From NCBI GenBank assembly GCA_041623475.1, contig JBFJWU010000066.1:1-12265 (forward strand): a DNA stretch of 12,265 nt, read 5' to 3'. Shown in pieces: positions 3 through 10,609 of this stretch (positions within the stretch are counted from its first letter, which is position 1; every line of letters starts with the position of its first letter). A program made the position numbers and the translations under genes. A model generated the notes under the pieces. It was not told the origin of the DNA. It saw only the letters and a program-made list of their open reading frames with translations, and ran no database searches. Source of the stretch: JBFJWU01 sp041623475 [NCBI: bacterium] (GTDB lineage: Bacteria > J088).

Positions 3-1670
3 CGGGGCCGATCAGCACCCGCATTTCTGGCTTCTGTACTGGTTACACTGGGTATCGCGGGCTGCGGTGACTCAGGCACAGCGACGACAGCAACCAGCCG
101 CCCGGCGACGATCCTGGACACAGCTGAATCCGTTAATTACCTCCAGGGCGTTGGCAGCATCATGGCGGCAATTGTCGCGCCACAGGCGACCTTGCCGAAA
201 GAACTTGACCTGTCCACCCCGACCTACTGTCCCGGGCAGACAGATGCGGTTGTCCAGGCGACGCCGCCGGTCTGCAGCCAGCCGGCGGCCGGCCAAACGG
301 CCTGTATCATTCCCGACATTGATTTTGCCGAGTGCGCTGGTGCCAGCGGCAAGATGAATGTCAAGGACATGCTGCTGAAAAGCGGTGACACGTATACTCA
401 GACGATTGTGACCGAAGGATTTTCGGTCGGTACCGGCGAAGTCGACACCACGATTGTCGAATACAACGGCGAAGTTGTTGTCGCCGGCGATGCCGCTGGA
501 TTGACCATTTCTGAAAGCCAGCACGTGACGGCCTCGTCAACCAATGCGACCGGCGAAACGTCGTTCCTGGTCGATGCAGATGCCGAGAGCGAACTGACTG
601 TGACCATTGACCGGGATAACGGCCTGCTGCTGTTGTCCGGGACTTCCGGATTCGCCGGGAACTTTCTGGATGGCGCAATCCGGGAGGGTGGCCTGGACGG
701 CACCCTGGACAGCCTGGGCTTTCCGCTGGACGGCTCCTGCGCAGGGCCGGTCACCGGGTCCACGACAATCAAGCTGGACGCAGGCATCATCAAGGCGACG
801 TCGATCGTCACCTATACCGGATGTGACGAAAACGGACTGCCAACCGCAAACCTGACCCTGTTCCAGCGTGATGGCTCGCCCTATGTCGAGGCGATGAAAC
901 CAGCCGACGCTGCGGCAACATTTGGTGCCGCAGCCGCTGCGATTACAACGCTCCAGTACGCATTGGCAAATGCGCAGCCGGTCACAACCGAGCCGTATAC
1001 ATCGGGTGACATTGCAATTTCCAGCGATCCCGACACCTGGTGCCGCTTTTTTGACCCGACAGGCGAGAAACTGACCGGGCCAATCCTTGCTGATTTCAAT
1101 GCATCCTATATGCCCTCCAGTGACCGACTGGCTGAGTGCCTTATGATTTCGCCGTCGTGGCCTGACCTTGACAGTCCGCCTGCCGTCACTTCAGAACGAT
1201 CATCTATCATTATCCAGGTTGACTTCGCCGGTGAATTGTCGGATCTGACGATGGCCAAGGTCATCACTGCAGTTTCCGGCGGCAACGTCGCCTTCGACAC
1301 TGCAAGCGATACGCTGTCAACTGTCAACATGTTTACGGTAGACATTTCCGATCCGGACAACCTGGCTGACCTGCGTTCAGAAGCGGCCGCCGCGCTGACC
1401 GCATCGACCGCTGTACTTGGATCGCCGTTTGTCACCGGGGTCCATCCCAATTCCGGAGCGCTCGGCGCGACCATCCCGGACTGGACGTGTATTGTCGAGG
1501 TTGATGACCAATTGACTGCAATGACATCGGACCTCCCGGATTCGGCTTCAGCTACGACCAGCCAATGCGTACCCCAGCCAGCATCGGTAACTGTCGAAAT
1601 CGGTCCGTTGGGCGCGTGGCTTGACAACGGCAGCGACACCGAACTGTTTTTCAAGGTACAACTGCCCTGA
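3..1670 (+). CDS. Putative lipoprotein of unknown function (5' end outside window)
   Basis: The reading frame is open from the left edge to the TGA at 1668-1670, giving about 555 visible codons. The start codon lies outside the window. The first visible residues form a hydrophobic stretch (FLASVLVTLGIAGC) ending in a lipobox I-A-G-C, with the cysteine codon at 63-65, followed by GDSGTATTA. This is a typical lipoprotein signal peptide and spacer, so the protein should be lipid-anchored, in the inner or outer membrane. An internal ATG at 162 would lose this signal and is not preferred. The mature part is acidic, rich in Thr, Ser, Asp and Gly, looks beta-rich, and has about ten further cysteines, which could form disulfides in the periplasm. 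I recognise no domain; in particular I see no OmpA/Pal-like motif. It lies 39 bases upstream of the yfiR-like gene, so it may share that operon. Its function is unknown. Confidence 0.8.
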   Translation, partial: RGRSAPAFLASVLVTLGIAGCGDSGTATTATSRPATILDTAESVNYLQGVGSIMAAIVAPQATLPKELDLSTPTYCPGQTDAVVQATPPVCSQPAAGQTACIIPDIDFAECAGASGKMNVKDMLLKSGDTYTQTIVTEGFSVGTGEVDTTIVEYNGEVVVAGDAAGLTISESQHVTASSTNATGETSFLVDADAESELTVTIDRDNGLLLLSGTSGFAGNFLDGAIREGGLDGTLDSLGFPLDGSCAGPVTGSTTIKLDAGIIKATSIVTYTGCDENGLPTANLTLFQRDGSPYVEAMKPADAAATFGAAAAAITTLQYALANAQPVTTEPYTSGDIAISSDPDTWCRFFDPTGEKLTGPILADFNASYMPSSDRLAECLMISPSWPDLDSPPAVTSERSSIIIQVDFAGELSDLTMAKVITAVSGGNVAFDTASDTLSTVNMFTVDISDPDNLADLRSEAAAALTASTAVLGSPFVTGVHPNSGALGATIPDWTCIVEVDDQLTAMTSDLPDSASATTSQCVPQPASVTVEIGPLGAWLDNGSDTELFFKVQLP

Positions 1671-1709: not shown

Positions 1710-2282
1710 GTGAAAAGACCTGACCTGATTTCAGCGGGGCCGCTTCAGAAATTGCTCTGGGGCGGCCTTGCCGTTTTGCTTTTATCCAGCGCCACTGTTG
1801 GTGCTGCGGGACAGGTTCCGTCCGCGTTAATGGTCAAGATTGTCATGGCAGCTGTGGCATATGACCGGTCCATCGACGAGCGGTTTGGCGACGTTGTCGA
1901 AGTCGCCGTAGCTGGCGATTCGTCCCGGGCTACCGAACTGATGGCTGTTCTCGGTAAATACTCGGGCAAAAAACTCAAGGGCAAGGATATCCAGTTGACT
2001 AACGTGTCAGTGGCCGATATCGGTACGGCAAAGCTGGATATCGTGTTTTTTGCCGATTCGCTGGGGGCGGACGCTGGCACTGTGGCCGCGCTGTGCCAGC
2101 AGAACCAGATCACGGCCATCAGTGCCGATGAAGATGGTGTGGCCAGCGGCCTGGCGTTGGGTGTCGAGTTGACATCAGACGGGAAACCGAAACTGCTGAT
2201 CAATCTGGATGCCGCAAAGTCGGCGGGCGCGAATTTTTCGGCGCAAATCCTGAAGCTCGCTCGACTGGTCGACGGCAAGTGA
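1710..2282 (+). CDS. YfiR-like periplasmic protein (DUF4154 family)
   Basis: A 190-residue protein with a GTG start. The N-terminus has a basic segment (KRPD) and a hydrophobic core ([19 protein letters not shown]), giving a signal peptide probably cut near residue 33, so the mature protein is periplasmic. The early segment [17 protein letters not shown] and the C-terminal segment [24 protein letters not shown] match the layout of YfiR/DUF4154 proteins as I remember it. In Pseudomonas, YfiR is the periplasmic repressor of the membrane diguanylate cyclase YfiN. Only one cysteine remains (in ALCQQNQ), so the disulfides described for Pseudomonas YfiR cannot form within one chain. No other ATG, GTG or TTG lies in frame between the previous stop and this GTG, and no clear Shine-Dalgarno sequence precedes it. 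Its stop overlaps the MCP start as GTGA. Inferred role: a periplasmic regulator of the downstream MCP. Confidence 0.8.
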
Positions 2283-4225
2283 CTGTTCGCAGCCAGTTAG
2301 GGATCCTGATCGCAGCCTTGTCGCTGCTGTTTGGAATCTTTATTGCGACATATTTTCCGGCGCGCCAGCAGGCCGCCAGTCTCGCCGCCCTGTCGGAACG
2401 TTTGGAAAGTGTTGGCTCCCTGGCTGCCGATCTGCTGGGTCCAAGCATCTTGTTTGAAGACACCGAGGGTATTGAGAACACCGTATCCTTCATCATGAAG
2501 CAGGACGATGCAGCGTTTGTCGTTGTCTGGGATTCATTTGACGATATTCTCAGTCAACAGGTTCGCGACGGGTTCGAAGCCGACCTGCAGGCGTACCTGG
2601 ACCTTGAAGACCGTGCGACATATGCCCGTGACGACCTGACGTTTCGCGCGGTCCCGATCCAGACCGACATGGACCAGGTCGGCACAATTGACATCGCATT
2701 CAGCCAACACAAAGTCCAGGAAGCCGCCATCAATAACCGGTTGGTGGCAATCGGGATTGCAATTGGATTTCTTCTGGTGGGACTGGCGGCGTCGATCCTG
2801 ATTGGTGCCCGACTGGTTCGCCCGCTTGGTGGCATTACCGAATCATTTGTAAAGCTCAGCCAGGGGGAAATCGGCCAGGACGTACCGGAATCAGGCGCCC
2901 GCGAATTTGTTGAATTGTCTCAGGCGTACAATCGCACAACCAGCGTCCTGCGCCAGGTTTTCCAGCAAATTGGAGAAGCGGCCCAAAGCCTGAAGTTCAT
3001 TGTCGATACCCTGCAGGATGACAACGTCTCAATCAAACAAGGGTCGGAAACGCTGGGCGAGACGGTGGGCGAGGTTGTCAGCAGTGTCGAGGAGATCACG
3101 TTTCAGGTACAGTCGGTCGCCGAGAATGCTGAAACCCTCGCCGAATGGATCCGGGTTGCCCATGGGGAAGTTCGCAAGGTCCAGGACGGAGCCGGACTGA
3201 TGCAGGAGCAATCCGGCTCGCTGCGCGAACAAATGGTCACACTTGGGGGCACCATTGAGAACCTCGCGGGCGGAATCGGCAGCATGACGAATGCGATCAA
3301 GTCCTGGGAATCCCAGGCTGATGTCGTAATCGTCGAAGCCCGGGCCGGGCAGGACTTTATTGGTGAGATCCTTCAGCAGATTCACACGAGTATCAACATC
3401 TTCCGGACAGTACGGGCCAGCGTCGAGCAGCTGTCCGGCGAGATCGTCCACATCAGCGAAATCATGGGCAGCCTCGAGAACATTGCCGATCAAACCCATA
3501 TCCTGGCCCTGAACGCGTCGATCGAAGCCGCCAGGGCAGGCCAGGCCGGACGCGGATTCAGCGTCGTTGCCAAGGAAATTCGGCGTCTGGCGGAGCAATC
3601 GGTCAAATCGGTCAAGCAGGTCGAGGAGTCCGTCGAGGGCATTCTCAAACGAAACAAGGAAGTCACGGAAACCGTTGATGACAGCTCGGAGAAGGTCGAA
3701 AGCGGGTTGACTGTAGCCGAGGAAGCAACTGAACGCCTGGCCAATATCGTCGAGCGAATTCAGGAAGTCGCGTCGTTGACAGAATCCATGAGTGGCAAGG
3801 TTCTTGAACAGGAACAAAGCATCCAGAATCTGGCGTCGTACATGAAAAACGTCGAGGAGTTCTCGCTCGTCGTTGGCGAAACCAGTGATCGACAGTTCCA
3901 GGAGACGACATCAATTTCCGAGGCGATGGAATCGCTTGTAAATCTGGGCAGCCAGATCCAACAGGCGATCCAGGAGCAACAGAAAGGCAGCCAGGAAATC
4001 CTGAGGTCCATCCAGACAGTCGATCACTCGGCATCACAAAGCCGGGAAACAGCAAACAATCTGGCATCGACTGTTGGCAACGTCGTCCGAGAGCAGGAGG
4101 TCCTGACATCGGTCGTTGGCTTCTTCAGTACCGGAACTGTATCCGGTGCTGATGGTGACATCGACGAAGAACACTCCGCTGACGGTGAATCACCGACGCC
4201 GGACGATTCAGAATCCGGGACTTGA
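2279..4225 (+). CDS. Methyl-accepting chemotaxis protein, CHASE8-like sensor, HAMP and MCP signalling domain
   Basis: A 648-residue transmembrane chemoreceptor. TM1 spans about residues 7-26. A periplasmic domain of about 125 residues follows; its beginning ([15 protein letters not shown]) resembles the CHASE8 sensor of YfiN-type proteins. TM2 covers about 155-177, and a HAMP domain starting at RLVRP (178-182) runs to about 230. A long coiled-coil signalling domain occupies about 233-612. The hairpin tip is clear at [20 protein letters not shown] (392-411), followed by [10 protein letters not shown] and [16 protein letters not shown]. The arms are about 175-200 residues, longer than those of the E. 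coli receptors. At the tip, H407 and Q422 replace residues that are Asn and Glu in Tsr. There is no C-terminal CheR/CheB-binding pentapeptide. The GTG start overlaps the yfiR stop by four bases (GTGA), so translation is probably coupled. Likely role: inner-membrane receptor passing a periplasmic signal, perhaps through YfiR, to a CheA/CheW-type pathway. Confidence 0.9.
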
Positions 4226-6420
4226 GACGCTTGCCCAGCGAGAATCTGGCGGTATTGTTCGGTCTGGTCGTGATTGCCTTGTCACCCGGACCCGCAACGG
4301 CGCAGGAAGCGGCGACAGACGTAACCAGTTCAGCCAGGGCGGTTTCCCCGGCCACAGATTCCAGCCAGCAGGCAACCACGGCTGTGTCGGAGCCACAAGG
4401 CGATACCGGGTTTGGAGACGAGTTTTCTGACTTCGGGGACCTGGACCTGTCACTGCTGCTGAACACAGAGGTTGTGTCGGCCAGCCAGAAGAAAGAGAAC
4501 ATATCCGACGCTCCGGCTGTAATCGATGTTGTCACCCCCGAGCAGATCCGGGCCTGGGGAGCATCAACGTTAAACGACGTACTGCAGCATATTCCGGGAG
4601 TGGAGGTAATCGAGAACTACTACGGATACACGAACATTAATGTCCGCGGGATCCAGCAGCCGCTGTATAACTCCCAGGTCCTGCTGATGATTGACGGCAT
4701 ACCGCTGATCGAATTCGGAAACATGAGCCTGCACGTTGAACAGGTCCCGATCAACAGCATCGAACGAATCGAGATTATTCGTGGCCCCGGAGCCGTTCTC
4801 TACGGAACGAACGCCTACTCTGCAGTAATCAACGTCATCACCAAAGAACCCGAATCTTCGGGTGGTCAGATTATGGGACTGGCCGGGGCGCCGAAATCGG
4901 GCGAAGCCCGGGCATCCGGCGCATACGTCTGGGAAGGGGGCTACGCGCGGCTCAGCGCCCAATTCCTCCGAACGCCAAACTGGACCGGCCGTGTTGACGC
5001 CGATGAAGCCGGGAGCAGCGGCTCTTTCCCAATGGGCGAGACGGACTTCACGGCACTCCTGCAGGCTGCCCAGTCAGTCGAAGGCCACAAGATCAGTCTG
5101 AGGACCGGGATAATGTCCCAGTCAAAAAACAAGTTTGCAATCGTTCCCCAAAGCCAGTTTCAATCGTATCCAAACGAGATCAACGCGCAGTTCAGTAACC
5201 TGGGCTGGCAGTGGAGTGATGACCAGCTGGAAGTAGCCGCCAACCTGGGTTACCAGCGTAACGACCGGATCGCGCACCTGGGAATCTTGCCCGACCCCGA
5301 AACGCCCCGAGACCCGTTTGCCGGCCGAGTCGGCATTGCGAAACAACATCGTACGACGACACTGGTCAGCTCCATGCTTTATGGTGCCAGGGTCGGATAC
5401 ACATTCGAGTCGCTGTCATTGATGAGCGGTTTTTCACAAACTGTTCATGGGTTGGGAAGCAGCAGGTATTTCCTGGAATTCGAAGACGATGGCCAGTTGT
5501 CGCCGTTGCAACCCGACATGGACCTGGACAGATTGAAGCTGTTCGATACAAACGCATTCCTTCAGGCCCTGTACCGGCCCGTTGACCAGTTGTCCCTGCT
5601 GGCCGGGGTCCGACTTAACTCATTTCGTCCCAACGGGCATCCGGTCCTGGACGCAACCGGACAGGCGCAGCCCACACCAGATGCACAGTTGACCTATAAT
5701 CCGCGAGCGGCCATCGTCTACCGCCTGACCGAAACAGCAACAATGAAATTGCTGTATGGCCGGGCGTTTCGGCTGCCATCACTGTTTGAACTGTTCGCCA
5801 TCGTTGCTGGTGTGGTCGAGGGCAACGAGGACCTGAAGCCGGAAGTGATTGATACGGTTGAATACGCGGTTGACATCAGACCGGTCGATACCTTCAGCAT
5901 CCGTGCCAATCTGTTTATGAACTTTACAGACGATGTCATTGCTCGTTTTGCGGCTCCGGGATCGACGCAGACGTATGTGAATAATCCGGGAGCCTGGATC
6001 CGTGGTGCTGAGCTGACGTTACGATGGCTGCCCCACAAGATGCTCGACATCTACCTGGCCGGCGGCTTCCAGGAAGGGGAGCGCAAGGATCCGGCCTCGC
6101 CGGGCGACGGCTATTCACTGTATCTCCGGAATATTGCCCGCATTACGGCAAACGGATCTGTGATTTTTCGACCCATTGATGAACTATCGATCACACCGTC
6201 GGTCATCCATATCGGCAAACGTGCCGGCCTTGACGGTGTAACGTTGCTGGCAGCGACAACATACTGGCAGGCGACAGACGTCCTTAGTATCGGAATCGTC
6301 GGACGAAACCTGACGGATAAACGCTATGCGTCACCGGAATTGATTCGTGGCCTGCTGCCTGGTGGCTTGACCGTCAACCAGCCGTTGACAATCCAGGGCT
6401 CGATATCTGCCGAATTCTAG
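4222..6420 (+). CDS. TonB-dependent outer-membrane receptor
   Basis: A 732-residue protein starting at TTG, which overlaps the MCP stop as TTGA. The N-terminus is a good signal peptide: RRLP, then [12 protein letters not shown], with cleavage near PATAQ (about residue 28). A Ser/Thr/Ala-rich linker (about 29-65) and an acidic stretch lead to [16 protein letters not shown] (77-91). The plug domain then runs to about 210, with [41 protein letters not shown] and [20 protein letters not shown] (181-200). The rest is rich in alternating aromatic and polar strands, as expected for a 22-strand barrel, and the chain ends in phenylalanine (SISAEF), the usual barrel signature. Family role: TonB-driven uptake of a scarce ligand such as a siderophore, cobalamin, nickel or saccharide; the substrate cannot be told. 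Coupling to the YfiR-like and MCP genes suggests it may serve as a sensor or supply ligand to one. No obvious TonB box was identified. Confidence 0.92.
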
Positions 6421-6434
6421 TTCCAGGGCAGGTA

Positions 6435-8054
6435 TCACTCATCCTGCAACCACGTTGCAAGAACAGCCAATTTTTCTGCTGATGCTGGTCCCCGCAACAC
6501 GATCCGGACAACTGACTGACCATTAGCGTCAAGCGCAGCGGCATCGCCGTCGGCCTGGGCGCGAATCAGTTGGCCGAACGTCGGTCCGCCTTTGTTGATG
6601 ACCATGTCCGGGTCCGGCTCATCAACAATCTGGATAGCCAGCAGACCGGTCGGCCCACCCTTGTGCAATTGGCCCGTAGAGTGCAGGAAACGCGGTCCGA
6701 AACCCGCGGTTACCGGCTTCATTGCAATGTCTTCAATTACGCAGCGTAATCGTTCCAACGCTTCCGCGTGGCCGTCCAGGTCGGCAACATAGCCCTGTAC
6801 AGTTATCCAACGTGCCTCACGCAATTTACCTGTCAATGACCGGATCGAGGCCCGGTCGGCATCGATCGACATTGGCGGTTCGCCTGGCGACTGACCCTCC
6901 AGCACTTTCCGGGCGAAGCTCTTGGCCGATTCCACATCTGGCTGGTCGAACGGATTTATCTCCATCGCGACCCCGGCCAGGGCCGTCGCCGCCTGCCAGC
7001 AATACATCGCCTGAAGTACGGATTCCTCAGTTGGGAAACGCTGAACGATGTGCGGCCCGTTGCCAGGGTCGCCGACATTGCAATCCAGCGAAACGCGGAC
7101 TATTGGGTCCTCTGGACGGCCATCTGGTACCTGGCCTGCCGTCCGGATGATCGGCACCAAACCACGGCCATGTTTACCCAGGCTTTCGGCAACGAGCTGT
7201 TCGATCCAGTCCGCCATCGGCCTGGTTCGCCGATCGACGACCAGCTCCAACGCCGTGCCACCCTCCAATAGCACCGCAACCATCGCGGCAGCAAGCTCCG
7301 CGGCGGGTCCATTGGCATCAAGGATCCGTCGGAACCCTTGCTCATCGATCGACTCCGGCAGACCGGACAACGCGCCTGACCATATCGCCGGCGCCAGCCC
7401 AAAGACCGACAAGGCTGAAAAACGGCCACCCACGTCAGGAGGGGCAACCAGGACTTGCTGAAATCGACTGGCCAGCGGTTCTTTGGTCAGCGCAGTACCC
7501 GGGTCGGAAATGGCCACGAATGGCAGTTCGGGAATCGATGCGTCTGCCTGGCAATGATCGTGCAACCAGCGAAATCCGGAAATAGTCTCAACGGTTGATC
7601 CGGATTTGCTTGCAACAATTACAGTTGCGTGTTGATGGTTGATGCCCTTCCCGATTGCCGCAACAGCAGCAGGATGGCTTGAATCAAGCACCACAAGCCT
7701 GCCGTTTGCCCCCGGAAACAGGCTCGAAAATACCATCGGTGCCAGGCTGGATCCGCCCATTCCAATCAGCACGACCTGGTCGCGCCTGGCTGAACGTCGC
7801 TGGCGAAGGTCGGCAATGGTCTCGTTCAGACCGGCAGGCAGACCCAACCAGCCCAGCCGGTCTGAAGGTCGCTCTGACGTAACAGGCCAGAGGCTGGCAT
7901 CACCAGCGGCCAGGCGTTGCGCGGCCTCCTTCTCGGCCAGCACGTTCCGGGCATCGGCGACCGCATCGACCATGGTTCCCAACCTGACCTGCTGCGTAAA
8001 TTCTGTCAACGAGTCCTGACCTGACGTTCCGTCGTTTCGATCTCGAGGCGTCAT
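6435..8054 (-). CDS. pgi: Glucose-6-phosphate isomerase (like the isomerase half of Tal-Pgi fusions)
   Basis: A 539-residue cytoplasmic enzyme interconverting glucose 6-phosphate and fructose 6-phosphate. Visible sugar-isomerase (SIS) motifs, numbered from the ATG at 8054, are GMGGSSLAP (98-106), ASKSGSTVET (148-157), GGRFS with R211, and AESLGKHG with E290, which lines up with the catalytic Glu region of Pgi. INPFDQPDVE (366-375) and FLHSTGQLHKGG (456-467) follow. The N-terminal GDASLWP and RLGWL and the HSTGQLHKGG motif resemble the isomerase half of bifunctional transaldolase/isomerase proteins, but no transaldolase domain or gene is present here. The frame stays open to 8519, antisense to tatB and the start of tatC; that extension looks like a shadow and was excluded. 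A TTG at 8009, preceded by AGGA, is an alternative start that would give 524 residues. The gene is divergent from tatB and convergent with the TonB receptor, 14 bases away. Confidence 0.88.
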   Translation of the reverse strand: MTPRDRNDGTSGQDSLTEFTQQVRLGTMVDAVADARNVLAEKEAAQRLAAGDASLWPVTSERPSDRLGWLGLPAGLNETIADLRQRRSARRDQVVLIGMGGSSLAPMVFSSLFPGANGRLVVLDSSHPAAVAAIGKGINHQHATVIVASKSGSTVETISGFRWLHDHCQADASIPELPFVAISDPGTALTKEPLASRFQQVLVAPPDVGGRFSALSVFGLAPAIWSGALSGLPESIDEQGFRRILDANGPAAELAAAMVAVLLEGGTALELVVDRRTRPMADWIEQLVAESLGKHGRGLVPIIRTAGQVPDGRPEDPIVRVSLDCNVGDPGNGPHIVQRFPTEESVLQAMYCWQAATALAGVAMEINPFDQPDVESAKSFARKVLEGQSPGEPPMSIDADRASIRSLTGKLREARWITVQGYVADLDGHAEALERLRCVIEDIAMKPVTAGFGPRFLHSTGQLHKGGPTGLLAIQIVDEPDPDMVINKGGPTFGQLIRAQADGDAAALDANGQSVVRIVLRGPASAEKLAVLATWLQDE

Positions 8055-8081
8055 TTTACAACGGACCGTCATCAGGCCGGT

Positions 8082-8090
8082 TGATACAAT
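8082..8090 (+). promoter_or_regulatory. Possible extended -10 promoter for tatBC
   Basis: The sequence TGATACAAT fits an extended -10 element (TGn followed by TACAAT, five of six matches to TATAAT). No good -35 lies at 16-18 bases, which is tolerated by extended -10 promoters. Transcription would start near 8097, about 19 bases before the tatB ATG and just ahead of its ribosome binding site. It sits in the 61-base gap between the divergent pgi and tatB genes. Confidence 0.4.
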
Positions 8091-8102
8091 GTCGCGATAC
8101 CA

Positions 8103-8109
8103 ACAAAGG
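8103..8109 (+). promoter_or_regulatory. Ribosome binding site deciding the tatB start
   Basis: An AAAGGA core lies six to seven bases before the ATG at 8116. An earlier in-frame ATG at 8089 would overlap the putative -10 box and add nine residues (MSRYQQRNR) that TatB proteins lack. The later ATG is therefore the start. Confidence 0.6.
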
Positions 8110-8115
8110 AACCGT

Positions 8116-8418
8116 ATGTTCGGAATCGGCTGGTCAGAATTGATTTTTGCCGGCGTGGTGGCACTGTTGGTCCTGGGACCGGACAAACTGCCAGTCGCCG
8201 CCCGGCAGGTCGGACGTTGGATGCGCGAGCTTCGCGCGACCAGTGCGGACCTGCGCGCCGAGTTTCGTGCTGAACTGGACGATGATTCCGATGCAATCCG
8301 TCCAGCAAGTGGGTCGTCTCTGTTTGAAAATGATGTTGATGACGACCACACGACCCGTTCGCCCGAGGCAGGTTTTGGCCAGGCTCGCCCCAGGATGACA
8401 GAGAAAAATGAAGCCTGA
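8116..8418 (+). CDS. tatB: Sec-independent (twin-arginine) translocase subunit TatB
   Basis: A 100-residue inner-membrane protein. It begins MFGIGWSELIF, closely matching E. coli TatB (MFDIGFSELLL), including E8. A single membrane helix runs from about residue 7 to 20, with the hinge G21-P22, then the amphipathic helix KLPVAARQVGRWMRELRATS and an acidic, poorly conserved tail. With TatC, TatB forms the receptor complex that recognises twin-arginine signal peptides of folded export substrates. The Glu at position 8 and the long charged second helix favour TatB over TatA. The last codons overlap tatC by 11 bases, so the two are co-transcribed and probably translationally coupled. No tatA precedes it, because the neighbour upstream is the divergent pgi. 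Confidence 0.9.
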   Translation: MFGIGWSELIFAGVVALLVLGPDKLPVAARQVGRWMRELRATSADLRAEFRAELDDDSDAIRPASGSSLFENDVDDDHTTRSPEAGFGQARPRMTEKNEA

Positions 8419-9214
8419 TGCATCGGTGGCCCAGTCGGGGCCGGATCATGACCCGGCCATGCCGCTGGTGGACCACTTGGGGGAACTGCGCCATCGCCTG
8501 ATGATGTCCGTAGGGGCAATCCTTGCAGGGTTCGTAATCTGCTACAGCTACGCCGAGCCCCTGTTCAATACGTTGCTTGCGCCCCTTCAGGAAATCCTGC
8601 CAACCAAGGGTGGCAACCTCATATTTACCGGGCTGACAGAACCTTTTCTTGTGTACCTGAAAACCGGGCTTCTGGGTGGCGTAATCCTGGCTATGCCCGT
8701 CATTTTCCTGCAGATCTGGCTGTTTGTTCGCCCGGCATTTCGCGGTCGCGAGGAAAAGTATACAACGGCGTTCGTGTTCTTCGGCAGCTTCCTGTTCGTG
8801 GTTGGAGCGGCGTTTGGTTACTTCCTTGTGTTTCCGTTTGGGTTCCGTTTCCTGATCCAGTTTGCCGATCCGGAGTTCCTGCCCTACCTGACCATTCGTG
8901 AATATTTTTCCCTGACAACCAAGATGCTGTTTGCGTTCGGATTGATGTTCGAAACTCCGCTGGTCCTGGTTTTCCTGGCCCGGCTGGGTGCGATTGATGC
9001 CGCATGGCTGCGCCGGAATCGCCGCTACGCCATTGTCGTAATCTTTGTTGTCGGGGCGATCCTGACCCCGCCGGACGTCGTCACCCAATTGATGCTGGCG
9101 GCTCCGTTAATGCTGTTGTACGAGCTGAGTATCGCGCTGGTGGTAATCATGGGCCGACCTCGCCCGGACACTGTCCCGTCAGAGGACCTTGCGGCAGGCA
9201 GCGATGCCCGGTAA
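8408..9214 (+). CDS. tatC: Sec-independent (twin-arginine) translocase subunit TatC
   Basis: A 268-residue polytopic inner-membrane protein with six hydrophobic helices. Family signatures are PLVDHLGELRHRL (19-31) before TM1, LTEPFLVYLK (76-85) in the first periplasmic region, FGLMFETPL with the membrane Glu at 182, and LTPPDVVTQ (219-227) before the last helices. These correspond to the E. coli segments HLIELRKRL, GVSFEVPV and LTPPDVFSQ. TatC is the core of the receptor complex and binds the twin-arginine signal peptide at its cytoplasmic face. The ATG at 8408 lies inside the end of tatB, an 11-base overlap. The length is slightly above that of E. coli TatC (258 residues), with a hydrophilic tail ending SDAR. 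The call is secure. Confidence 0.97.
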   Translation: MKPDASVAQSGPDHDPAMPLVDHLGELRHRLMMSVGAILAGFVICYSYAEPLFNTLLAPLQEILPTKGGNLIFTGLTEPFLVYLKTGLLGGVILAMPVIFLQIWLFVRPAFRGREEKYTTAFVFFGSFLFVVGAAFGYFLVFPFGFRFLIQFADPEFLPYLTIREYFSLTTKMLFAFGLMFETPLVLVFLARLGAIDAAWLRRNRRYAIVVIFVVGAILTPPDVVTQLMLAAPLMLLYELSIALVVIMGRPRPDTVPSEDLAAGSDAR

Positions 9215-9230
9215 CCAGGACGAATCTGTC

Positions 9231-9476
9231 ATGACGTTCCAGACGACGTTTCGAGTCATGATGGCCGACCGGACCCTTTCGGCCGAAAACCTGGGACACG
9301 GGTTGTCGCCGACCCCCGACGGCGTGGAAAGCCCATGTGGACTGTGTATTCGTGTGCCCGCAGCAAACGTCGGGGACGCAACAGAACTGCTGGCCGAAAA
9401 ACGAATTGTGTGGGAACAGATCTACCGGCGCAGTGCCGGCGGCTGGGAATCCTACGAACCGGACGGGGCCGGGTGA
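9231..9476 (+). CDS. Small uncharacterised protein with a CxxC motif
   Basis: An 81-residue soluble protein that I do not recognise. It starts MTFQTTFRVMMADRT and contains CGLC within a Pro- and Gly-containing region, then VGDATELLAEKRIVWEQIYR and a Trp/Tyr-containing end. The two cysteines could bind a metal or be redox-active, but one CxxC alone proves little. The ATG at 9231 has AGGA ten bases upstream. In-frame alternatives are ATG 9204, overlapping tatC by 11 bases exactly as tatC overlaps tatB, and TTG 9189. It follows tatC closely on the same strand and is probably in the same transcript. Its last 25 bases overlap the end of the convergent dCTP deaminase gene. It could be a spurious frame, but the long open frame beside a close gene argues for a real one. 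Confidence 0.55.
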   Translation: MTFQTTFRVMMADRTLSAENLGHGLSPTPDGVESPCGLCIRVPAANVGDATELLAEKRIVWEQIYRRSAGGWESYEPDGAG

Positions 9477-10609
9477 CCCAATAGCCGATCTTCCCAGGAT
9501 TTGAAATGCTTGCCCAGTGCCAGGTCCTGCCCCTGGTACGAGGATCCAATGTCCACCCCATAAAGTTTGTCGGGCTCTTCGGTCAGGTGCTCATAAACCA
9601 GGCGGCCGACAACCTGGCCGTCCTCGATAAAAAACGGTACCTCGTGGGACCGCACTTCCAGCACCGCACGCGAGCCCATCATGTCGCCGGTACCGTATCC
9701 AAATCCAGGATCAAAAAAGCCGGCGTAATGTACCCGGAATTCGCCAAATGCAGAATCATAAGCCACCATCTCGGCGGCGTAATCTTTGGGAATACGGACC
9801 CGCTCTTTTGAAATCAGGATGTAAAACTCATCCGGGTTCAGGACGATGCTGCCGCTGGCCGGCGAATAGACTGGTTCCCAGAATTCAAGCGGATCGTAAA
9901 AATCAACATTCGCCAGGTCAACGACTTTGGTGTTCTTGTGGCTGCGAAACCCGATCACGTCATGTTCGCCAACACCACCCAGGTCAACGCTGAACCGCAA
10001 CCCGTCCTTGAGGACCGCTTCGGCCGGATTCCCGTCCTTGTCGTATGCGAGGATCTCATCTTCGTCCTGCCGGTACGCATCTTCGTCCATCTTGTTTGAC
10101 TGCCCCCTGAACAGCCGTAGCTGATTCAGGCGATCGCCCTGTCGAACCCGGATGCTGAAGGACAATGGTACGACTTCGACGTACAACGGTCCCGCATACC
10201 CCGCCGGAATCTCCTCGAACTCGACACCGAAATCAGTGATCAGGCGTGTAAATACATCCAGGCGGCCGGTCGAACTTTTGGGATTGGCCCGGCCCGAAAT
10301 ACCATCCGGAAGATTAAGATTTTCCAGCAGGGGAATAATATACACGCAGCCTTTTTCCAGGACTGCCGGATTAGCCATCGAGATCTCGTGCATCAGGATT
10401 TTGTCCAGGCGTTCCTGTACCCGCGCGCCCCGCCCCGGCAGGAAGCTGCCCTGGACACGGTACGCGACAGATCCCAACCGCAGGTCAACGCTGGATGGCT
10501 GGATATTGTCTTCGGGGACCGGAATCGTGCTGACGATCCCTCCCGATTGCACAAGGGAGCGAATTTCCTGTGACGGCAGGACACCGTTTGGCTTTTGTTC
10601 CGTTGACAT
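9452..10609 (-). CDS. dcd: 2'-deoxycytidine 5'-triphosphate deaminase, long two-domain form
   Basis: A 385-residue cytoplasmic enzyme that converts dCTP to dUTP and ammonia, feeding dTMP synthesis. It belongs to the long DCD family, which carries two copies of the dUTPase/Dcd fold. First half: IQPSSVDLRLG (36-46), EKGCVYIIPLLE (85-96), ANPKSSTGRLDVF (108-120), matching the RSSxxR motif of Dcd, then GPLYVEV with E145 at the place of the catalytic Glu. Second half: EFYILISKERVRIP, then AGFFDPGFGYG (296-306) and AVLEVR with E318. Ordinary bacterial Dcd is about 190 residues, so this is close to double length. The ATG at 10609 is preceded by AGGG at a spacing of about nine. It lies 105 bases downstream of the AI-2E-family gene and has its own promoter. 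Its 3' end overlaps the convergent small gene downstream of tatC. Confidence 0.9.
   Translation of the reverse strand: MSTEQKPNGVLPSQEIRSLVQSGGIVSTIPVPEDNIQPSSVDLRLGSVAYRVQGSFLPGRGARVQERLDKILMHEISMANPAVLEKGCVYIIPLLENLNLPDGISGRANPKSSTGRLDVFTRLITDFGVEFEEIPAGYAGPLYVEVVPLSFSIRVRQGDRLNQLRLFRGQSNKMDEDAYRQDEDEILAYDKDGNPAEAVLKDGLRFSVDLGGVGEHDVIGFRSHKNTKVVDLANVDFYDPLEFWEPVYSPASGSIVLNPDEFYILISKERVRIPKDYAAEMVAYDSAFGEFRVHYAGFFDPGFGYGTGDMMGSRAVLEVRSHEVPFFIEDGQVVGRLVYEHLTEEPDKLYGVDIGSSYQGQDLALGKHFKSWEDRLLGHPAPSGS

What the first reader, a model, noticed from the sequence alone, without database searches (positions are those of the whole stretch)
1710..6420. YfiR-like protein, chemoreceptor and TonB receptor encoded as one translationally coupled module
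The sequence shows a YfiR-like periplasmic protein, an MCP with a YfiN-like (CHASE8-like) periplasmic domain, and a TonB-dependent receptor, joined by 4-base stop/start overlaps. In the known YfiBNR system the YfiR partner is a GGDEF diguanylate cyclase. Here the same sensing front end appears to be attached to a chemotaxis-type output. Inference: a ligand or state sensed at the outer membrane is relayed through YfiR to the MCP, so the module would control motility or another Che-type pathway instead of c-di-GMP.
Basis: partly seen in the sequence, partly recalled or inferred. Interest (0 to 1): 0.7.

Follow-up and report, generated by a model that had tools for sequence, protein, structure and literature searches.

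The report
Outer-membrane receptor wired to chemoreceptor
Three overlapping genes look like a signalling chain in which an outer-membrane receptor and a small periplasmic protein control a chemotaxis-type sensor, where most relatives that could be examined use a different kind of sensor (a histidine kinase).

Summary
At 1710-6420 lie a DUF4154/YfiR-like secreted protein, a methyl-accepting chemotaxis protein (MCP) and a TonB-dependent receptor, joined by GTGA and TTGA overlaps. The closest known kind is not YfiBNR alone but an already catalogued trio, TonB receptor + YfiR-like + CHASE8 histidine kinase: NCBIfam models all three parts, and Pelobacter plasmid pPRO1 has it in the window's order with the same 4-base overlaps. 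Of 91 DUF4154 genes examined around two genome centres, 81 have a histidine kinase directly downstream. None has a directly coupled MCP; one has an MCP 639 nt away across an opposite-strand ORF (L052). One sits beside a GGDEF gene (L119). The MCP's periplasmic region resembles the CHASE8 domain of the partner kinases above shuffled controls, but weakly. Most likely this is an output-swapped variant in which the receptor signals through YfiR to an MCP. Not shown: YfiR-MCP binding, the ligand, the Che pathway (no whole genome held; structure models unusable). "Instead of c-di-GMP" is unsupported, since MCP pathways such as Wsp make c-di-GMP.

The parts
1710..2282 (+). YfiR/HmsC-like (DUF4154) protein, divergent; signal-peptide-like hydrophobic N-terminus; a single cysteine
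   Evidence: Pfam PF13689 2.2e-11 over cut-off; NCBIfam TOL_0243 YfiR-like 31.4 bits, below its cut-off of 125, and YfiR proper 13.8 bits of 85; translation; hydropathy
2279..2282 (+). GTGA stop/start overlap, yfiR-like / mcp
   Evidence: sequence
2279..4225 (+). MCP: TM1 (about residues 4-25), CHASE8-like periplasmic region (38-139), TM2 (about 150-175), HAMP (175-225), long signalling hairpin (MCPsignal match 378-527; QTHILALN starts at residue 405)
   Evidence: Pfam; hydropathy; profile comparisons; alignment with E. coli Tsr
4222..4225 (+). TTGA stop/start overlap, mcp / TonB receptor
   Evidence: sequence
4222..6420 (+). TonB-dependent outer-membrane receptor: signal-peptide-like start, about 65 residues before the plug match (94-201), barrel, C-terminal Phe; no separate signalling domain listed by Pfam
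   Evidence: Pfam Plug and barrel; NCBIfam TOL_0244 116.5 bits, below its cut-off of 645; TonB-hemin 132.7 bits, below 316.85
3..1670 (+). possible further member of the transcription unit: lipoprotein-like ORF open at the window edge, family unknown, ends 39 nt before the yfiR-like gene
   Evidence: ORF; no Pfam or NCBIfam family over cut-off; lipobox-like LGIAGC read by eye

Best explanation
The three genes form one trans-envelope signalling module, a variant of the TonB-receptor / YfiR-like / CHASE8-sensor trio in which the histidine kinase is replaced by an MCP. Proposed working: the ligand-bound or transporting state of the TonB receptor changes how much YfiR-like protein is free in the periplasm, or how it is presented. 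The YfiR-like protein binds the CHASE8-like periplasmic domain of the MCP and biases its HAMP and hairpin, which controls a CheA/CheW-type kinase. Shown: gene order, overlaps, domain identities (CHASE8 weakly), and recurrence of the same trio with a kinase output in many genomes. Inferred: that YfiR binds the MCP and the receptor (by analogy with YfiR-YfiN and YfiB-YfiR), the sign of control, the ligand, and coupling to CheA.
For: Domain calls and overlaps. Pelobacter pPRO1 has YfiR (3798-4331), a CHASE8-HAMP histidine kinase (4328-5881) and a TonB receptor (5878-7884), the same order with 4-base overlaps at both joints. NCBIfam models the three linked families NF053590, NF053591 and NF053592. 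Of 71 DUF4154 ORFs in the first batch, 61 have a kinase directly downstream (57 of the 61 overlapping or within 20 nt), and 46 of the 61 also have a TonB receptor within 700 nt upstream; in the second batch 20 of 20 have the kinase and 18 of 20 a receptor next to the YfiR gene. The periplasmic-only profile finds the 62 adjacent kinases it was built on (61 plus Pelobacter) and also E. coli DgcN/YfiN, which it was not built on, at 3.2e-11. With filters off, the window MCP is the next hit after the kinases and DgcN in a pool of 3289 sequences and exceeds 2000 shuffles; hhalign gives 75% with TM2/HAMP included against 2.7% for Tsr. Output varies in this setting: in L119 a GGDEF gene ends 2 nt before YfiR and a TonB receptor overlaps YfiR by 4 nt. 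The MCP tip keeps the core LALN..(I/V)EAARAG..GRGF.VVA pattern of Tsr. Literature for YfiR bridging an inner-membrane sensor and an outer-membrane partner: PMC4655355 (passages).
Against: No second directly coupled YfiR-MCP-TonB case was found. The window YfiR and TonB receptor fall below the NCBIfam cut-offs of the trio families, and the MCP is not listed against the kinase-partner model NF053592 at E up to 0.1. The CHASE8 match is weak: the periplasmic-only profile with default filters did not report the window at all; with filters off its E is 0.006-0.02 in the pool (12.8-14.6 bits), not far above the next hits, two hybrid or other kinases' ORFs at 11.5 and 11.2 bits and the sCache MCP of L052 at 9.3. 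The longer profile that includes TM2 and HAMP is not specific: it scores the L052 MCP 51.3 bits, higher than the window's 26.1. hhalign falls to 27% without TM2/HAMP. The family's N-terminal F..F.EWP motif, in a region said to belong to YfiR's conserved surface, is not kept. No binding, ligand or Che partner could be tested.
Confidence: 0.55

Rival explanations
1. Same module, but the MCP feeds a Wsp-like or other 'alternative function' chemosensory pathway that makes c-di-GMP or changes development, so the final output is close to that of YfiBNR and not motility.
For: WspA is an MCP, and a c-di-GMP response depends on wspA and wspR (PMC8846402, passages). The hairpin arm is clearly longer than in Tsr (about 196 residues from HAMP end to the turn, my count). 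No strict methylation consensus and no NWETF-type C-terminus were found.
Against: No Che-family match among the 11 window proteins scanned with Pfam, other than the MCP itself, and nothing positive points to Wsp.
Confidence: 0.25
2. The MCP is an ordinary chemoreceptor with its own small-molecule ligand and only shares an operon with YfiR and the receptor, so that taxis and uptake of one nutrient are co-expressed without physical relay.
For: CHASE8 belongs to the CACHE-like clan that contains direct ligand sensors (PMC8846402, passages). The CHASE8 match is weak. L052 shows an sCache_3_2 MCP near a YfiR-TonB pair with an opposite-strand ORF between.
Against: The MCP sits in the slot that a kinase fills in 81 of 91 examined DUF4154 genes and in Pelobacter; its periplasmic part is nearer to those kinases' domain than any other non-kinase ORF in the pool apart from DgcN.
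Confidence: 0.15
3. Non-functional or chance arrangement: an MCP inserted between unrelated genes, or an assembly join.
For: Single example; source genome not held.
Against: Two in-frame 4-base overlaps, intact domains in all three genes, gene order as in Pelobacter.
Confidence: 0.03

Closest known systems
TonB receptor / YfiR-like / histidine kinase module (NCBIfam NF053590 TOL_0244, NF053591 TOL_0243, NF053592 'sensor histidine kinase, YfiR-like protein-associated')
   Same: Three gene types side by side with close or overlapping ends; DUF4154 protein; CHASE8-HAMP sensor; TonB receptor; Pelobacter pPRO1 gives the identical order YfiR-sensor-receptor with 4-base overlaps
   Different: Output domain is MCP in place of histidine kinase; the window proteins fall below the model cut-offs; most surveyed loci run receptor-YfiR-kinase, not YfiR-sensor-receptor
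YfiBNR (YfiR, DgcN/YfiN, YfiB) of E. coli and P. aeruginosa
   Same: DUF4154 protein; periplasmic domain of the sensor weakly related to that of DgcN through the kinase profile; a candidate outer-membrane partner encoded alongside
   Different: No GGDEF, no OmpA-like lipoprotein found; one cysteine where P. aeruginosa YfiR has two conserved pairs
FecA/FpvA-type TonB receptor signalling to an anti-sigma factor (recalled)
   Same: TonB receptor as the presumed trigger of a trans-envelope signal
   Different: No N-terminal signalling domain listed by Pfam for the receptor; no sigma/anti-sigma family among the 11 window proteins scanned
Chemoreceptors with periplasmic binding-protein input (for example Tar with maltose-binding protein; recalled)
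   Same: MCP reading the state of a periplasmic protein
   Different: The proposed periplasmic relay is a YfiR-like protein tied to an outer-membrane receptor, not a solute-binding protein

Membership tests
TonB receptor / YfiR-like / histidine kinase module (TOL_0243/0244 type) | DUF4154 protein, membrane sensor and TonB receptor encoded side by side | tested here: met
TonB receptor / YfiR-like / histidine kinase module (TOL_0243/0244 type) | CHASE8 periplasmic domain on the sensor | tested here: inconclusive
   Pfam 15.3 of 27 bits; home profile 15.5 bits vs 8.7 in shuffles with filters off, not reported with default filters; hhalign 75% with and 27% without TM2/HAMP
TonB receptor / YfiR-like / histidine kinase module (TOL_0243/0244 type) | proteins over the NCBIfam cut-offs | tested here: not met
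   YfiR 31.4 vs 125 bits, receptor 116.5 vs 645 bits, NF053592 not listed for the MCP; Pelobacter's trio is also below the cut-offs
TonB receptor / YfiR-like / histidine kinase module (TOL_0243/0244 type) | histidine kinase output | tested here: not met
   MCPsignal found; no HisKA or HATPase in the 21-family table
YfiBNR | YfiR (DUF4154) protein | tested here: met
   PF13689 over cut-off; NCBIfam YfiR proper only 13.8 of 85 bits
YfiBNR | GGDEF output on the inner-membrane partner | tested here: not met
YfiBNR | OmpA-like lipoprotein YfiB | tested here: not met
   no OmpA family match in the six window proteins scanned or the five
YfiBNR | two cysteine pairs in YfiR | tested here: not met
   one Cys in the window protein; pairs described for P. 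aeruginosa in PMC4655355
Methyl-accepting chemotaxis protein | TM-periplasmic-TM-HAMP-MCPsignal layout | tested here: met
Methyl-accepting chemotaxis protein | conserved hairpin tip for CheA/CheW | tested here: met
   alignment with Tsr; Phe373, Asn376 and Glu391 of Tsr are Asp, His and Gln here (residue roles recalled)
Methyl-accepting chemotaxis protein | methylation sites | tested here: inconclusive
   four relaxed motif matches, no strict one; motif pattern recalled
Methyl-accepting chemotaxis protein | cheA/cheW in the genome | not testable with these tools
   no whole genome held

The most novel reading that the evidence does not exclude
A chemoreceptor array that reads an outer-membrane TonB receptor: the receptor, through a YfiR-like periplasmic relay, directly modulates an MCP, so cells steer or switch behaviour by what the outer-membrane transporter is binding, not by what reaches the inner membrane. 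The TonB/YfiR front end would then be a general adaptor that can be plugged into kinase, diguanylate cyclase or MCP outputs.
Probability: 0.38. Interest if true: 0.72.

Novelty: new variant of a known kind. Interest (0 to 1): 0.5.

Why it matters
The kinase form of this trio is common in the genomes surveyed and catalogued by NCBIfam, but six searches of the open library listed no paper that describes it in title or abstract opening. An MCP in the same slot, together with the GGDEF case in L119, suggests an exchangeable-output module and gives a direct test of whether chemosensory arrays can be driven from the outer membrane.

Tried and rejected
Rejected: YfiBNR with an MCP swapped in as the main frame, because the receptor and the common kinase trio fit better. 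Rejected: chance arrangement (two overlaps, Pelobacter order). L052 was looked at as a second MCP case and kept only as a weak one: the gap is 639 nt with an opposite-strand ORF (5431-5832, which I read by eye as PilZ-like; no family search was run on it), and the MCP has sCache_3_2, not CHASE8.

Led nowhere: genome-contig scan with the TonB receptor (38 stretches, none confirmed); the dCTP deaminase scan confirmed 2 of 101 stretches, a Nitrospirae and a Rokubacteria MAG, which became the two centres of the survey and have no DUF4154 themselves; viral contigs with the MCP (none); plasmids with the window YfiR (none) and with the Pelobacter YfiR (itself only); plasmids with the MCP N-terminal part (20 weak records, matches within residues 125-234); plasmid TonB loci L002, L003 and L122-L125 showed no YfiR by my profile; the MCP searched in 395 genomes of the phylum of G001 gave many ordinary MCP matches, none of which I followed; PDB sequence searches (none). 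AlphaFold on single sequences: YfiR mean pLDDT 42.1, MCP residues 1-234 53.5; too poor, so no fold search was run. The source organism stayed unidentified: its dCTP deaminase is at most 53% identical to plasmid-borne Alphaproteobacteria copies and 52% to full-length matches in the phylum of G002 (one 115-residue fragment 54%). The survey covers the surroundings of two genome centres plus one plasmid, so absence elsewhere is not shown. That these are Nitrospirota and Methylomirabilota is my reading of the titles of L006 and L007.

Rows dropped before the count: (61 match rows), three fragment rows of G293 on contigs C25 and C77 were not fetched, and G282 (below cut-off; fetched as L121) was not recognised as YfiR by my profile, leaving 57; all 14 rows were used, giving 71. 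In one search, 21 rows were new; G432 (stops inside) was not fetched, leaving 20. Opposite-strand shadow ORFs of YfiR genes seen were removed. E. coli YfiR (L004) fell below my profile's threshold and, like Pelobacter and the window, is not in the 91. L108 and L109 give the same scores and gene coordinates and may be near-copies; both were counted.
Full report
Observation. Three ORFs on the + strand, 1710-2282, 2279-4225 and 4222-6420, overlap by four bases at each joint (GTGA 2279-2282, TTGA 4222-4225). Pfam assigns DUF4154 (YfiR/HmsC-like, 44.5 bits), HAMP plus MCPsignal, and TonB plug plus barrel, all over cut-off; CHASE8 on the MCP is below cut-off (E 0.024) though it spans positions 5-101 of the 102-column model. 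Upstream, a 555-aa lipoprotein-like ORF open at the window edge ends 39 nt before the first gene and may share its transcript. Downstream, a convergent phosphoglucose isomerase-like ORF ends 14 nt away.

What it is. A TonB receptor, a YfiR-like protein and a sensor side by side is an established arrangement. Pelobacter propionicus plasmid pPRO1 carries YfiR (3798-4331), a CHASE8-HAMP histidine kinase (4328-5881) and a TonB receptor (5878-7884), the same order as the window with both joints overlapping by four bases. NCBIfam holds models for the three: TOL_0244 receptor, TOL_0243 YfiR-like protein, and 'sensor histidine kinase, YfiR-like protein-associated'. The window proteins relate to the first two but lie below the cut-offs; Pelobacter's proteins lie below them too.

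Survey. From two genome centres I searched for DUF4154: 52 of 295 relatives of G001, 13 of 95 in the phylum of G002, and 70 of 395 in a wider draw of the phylum of G001, which overlaps the first. I fetched the neighbourhoods. First batch: 71 DUF4154 ORFs at 69 loci; the nearest annotated gene downstream on the same strand within 700 nt is a histidine kinase in 61 (57 of them overlapping or within 20 nt), a TonB receptor in 6, none in 3, an MCP in 1. Of the 61, 46 also have a TonB receptor within 700 nt upstream. Second batch: 20 of 20 have the kinase, 18 of 20 a receptor beside the YfiR gene. Together 81 of 91 have a kinase directly downstream and 0 of 91 a directly coupled MCP. The one MCP (L052) lies 639 nt downstream beyond an opposite-strand ORF and has an sCache_3_2 domain. 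In L119 a GGDEF gene ends 2 nt before YfiR and a TonB receptor overlaps YfiR by 4 nt. Orders differ: most surveyed loci run receptor-YfiR-kinase; the window and Pelobacter run YfiR-sensor-receptor. These tallies rest on home-made profiles, checked with Pfam on selected proteins.

Does the MCP carry the partner domain? I built a profile from the N-terminal parts of the 62 adjacent kinases (61 plus Pelobacter) and cut it to the periplasmic columns. It finds the 62 it was built on, and E. coli DgcN/YfiN (3.2e-11), which it was not built on; with HMMER's default filters it does not report the window MCP. With filters off the window region scores 15.5 bits, against a maximum of 8.7 for 2000 shuffles of the same region, 9.3 for the L052 MCP and below 0 for the two other MCPs reported. 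In a pool of 3289 sequences (three of them forms of the window MCP) it comes directly after the kinases and DgcN with 12.8 to 14.6 bits, E 0.006 to 0.02; the next hits have 11.5 and 11.2 bits, so the margin is small. The longer profile with TM2 and HAMP gives the window E 1.2e-6 and none of 200 shuffles, but it is not specific for CHASE8: it scores the sCache MCP of L052 51.3 bits, above the window's 26.1. Profile comparison gives 75% with TM2/HAMP and 27% without, against 2.7% for Tsr. I read this as a probable but divergent CHASE8 domain.

Output. The MCP hairpin keeps the core tip pattern of Tsr with Asp, His and Gln in place of Tsr Phe373, Asn376 and Glu391, among other changes. From HAMP end to the turn I count about 196 residues, clearly longer than Tsr. 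No strict methylation motif and no NWETF-like tail were found. This suggests a signalling-competent receptor but does not say which Che pathway it serves.

Mechanism. In P. [quoted passage not shown] The conserved surface of YfiR is formed by helices alpha3 and alpha4 with contributions from strand beta7 and the N-terminal helix, and about 30% of it is covered by YfiB; the YfiN interface itself is not confirmed (PMC4655355, passages). The window YfiR keeps the C-terminal segment ([24 protein letters not shown]) in family register but not the N-terminal F..F.EWP motif, and has one cysteine, so the cysteine-pair chemistry described for P. aeruginosa YfiR cannot apply. By analogy the TonB receptor takes the place of YfiB, and the MCP that of YfiN or of the kinase. 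The relay is inference. The sign of control and the ligand are unknown; TonB-hemin is the top-scoring NCBIfam model for the receptor but is far below its cut-off.

Novelty. The parent module is known to annotators; the MCP output appears to be a new variant. Searches of the open library for YfiR with TonB, MCP or histidine kinase, and for DUF4154 and CHASE8, listed no paper whose title or abstract opening describes either form (listings only, apart from passages of PMC4655355 and PMC8846402). Most subscription papers are not in that library, and the survey covers only the surroundings of two genome centres.

Noticed in passing
window 3-1670: Lipoprotein-like ORF of unknown family (LGIAGC near the open start), same strand, ends 39 nt upstream of the yfiR-like gene; could be part of the module.
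   Followed up: partly
L119 2-373, 376-909, 906-3293: GGDEF gene, YfiR and TonB receptor in a row: a possible diguanylate-cyclase-output version of the TonB/YfiR module (the GGDEF gene is cut by the contig end, so its sensor domain is not seen).
   Followed up: partly
L052 3035-8829: TonB receptor and YfiR that pass the TOL_0244 and TOL_0243 cut-offs, with an sCache_3_2 MCP downstream across an opposite-strand ORF (5431-5832); possibly a second, looser MCP link.
   Followed up: partly
L116 5845-9603: Two YfiR-like genes flanking one TonB receptor, with no kinase detected by my profiles in the 16 kb stretch.
   Followed up: no
window 6435-8519, 8089-9214, 9189-9476, 9452-10609: Flanking genes: phosphoglucose isomerase-like (best NCBIfam match, below cut-off, is the transaldolase/isomerase fusion), TatA/B and TatC, a Se/S carrier-like protein, and a two-domain dCTP deaminase (PRK07559).
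   Followed up: partly
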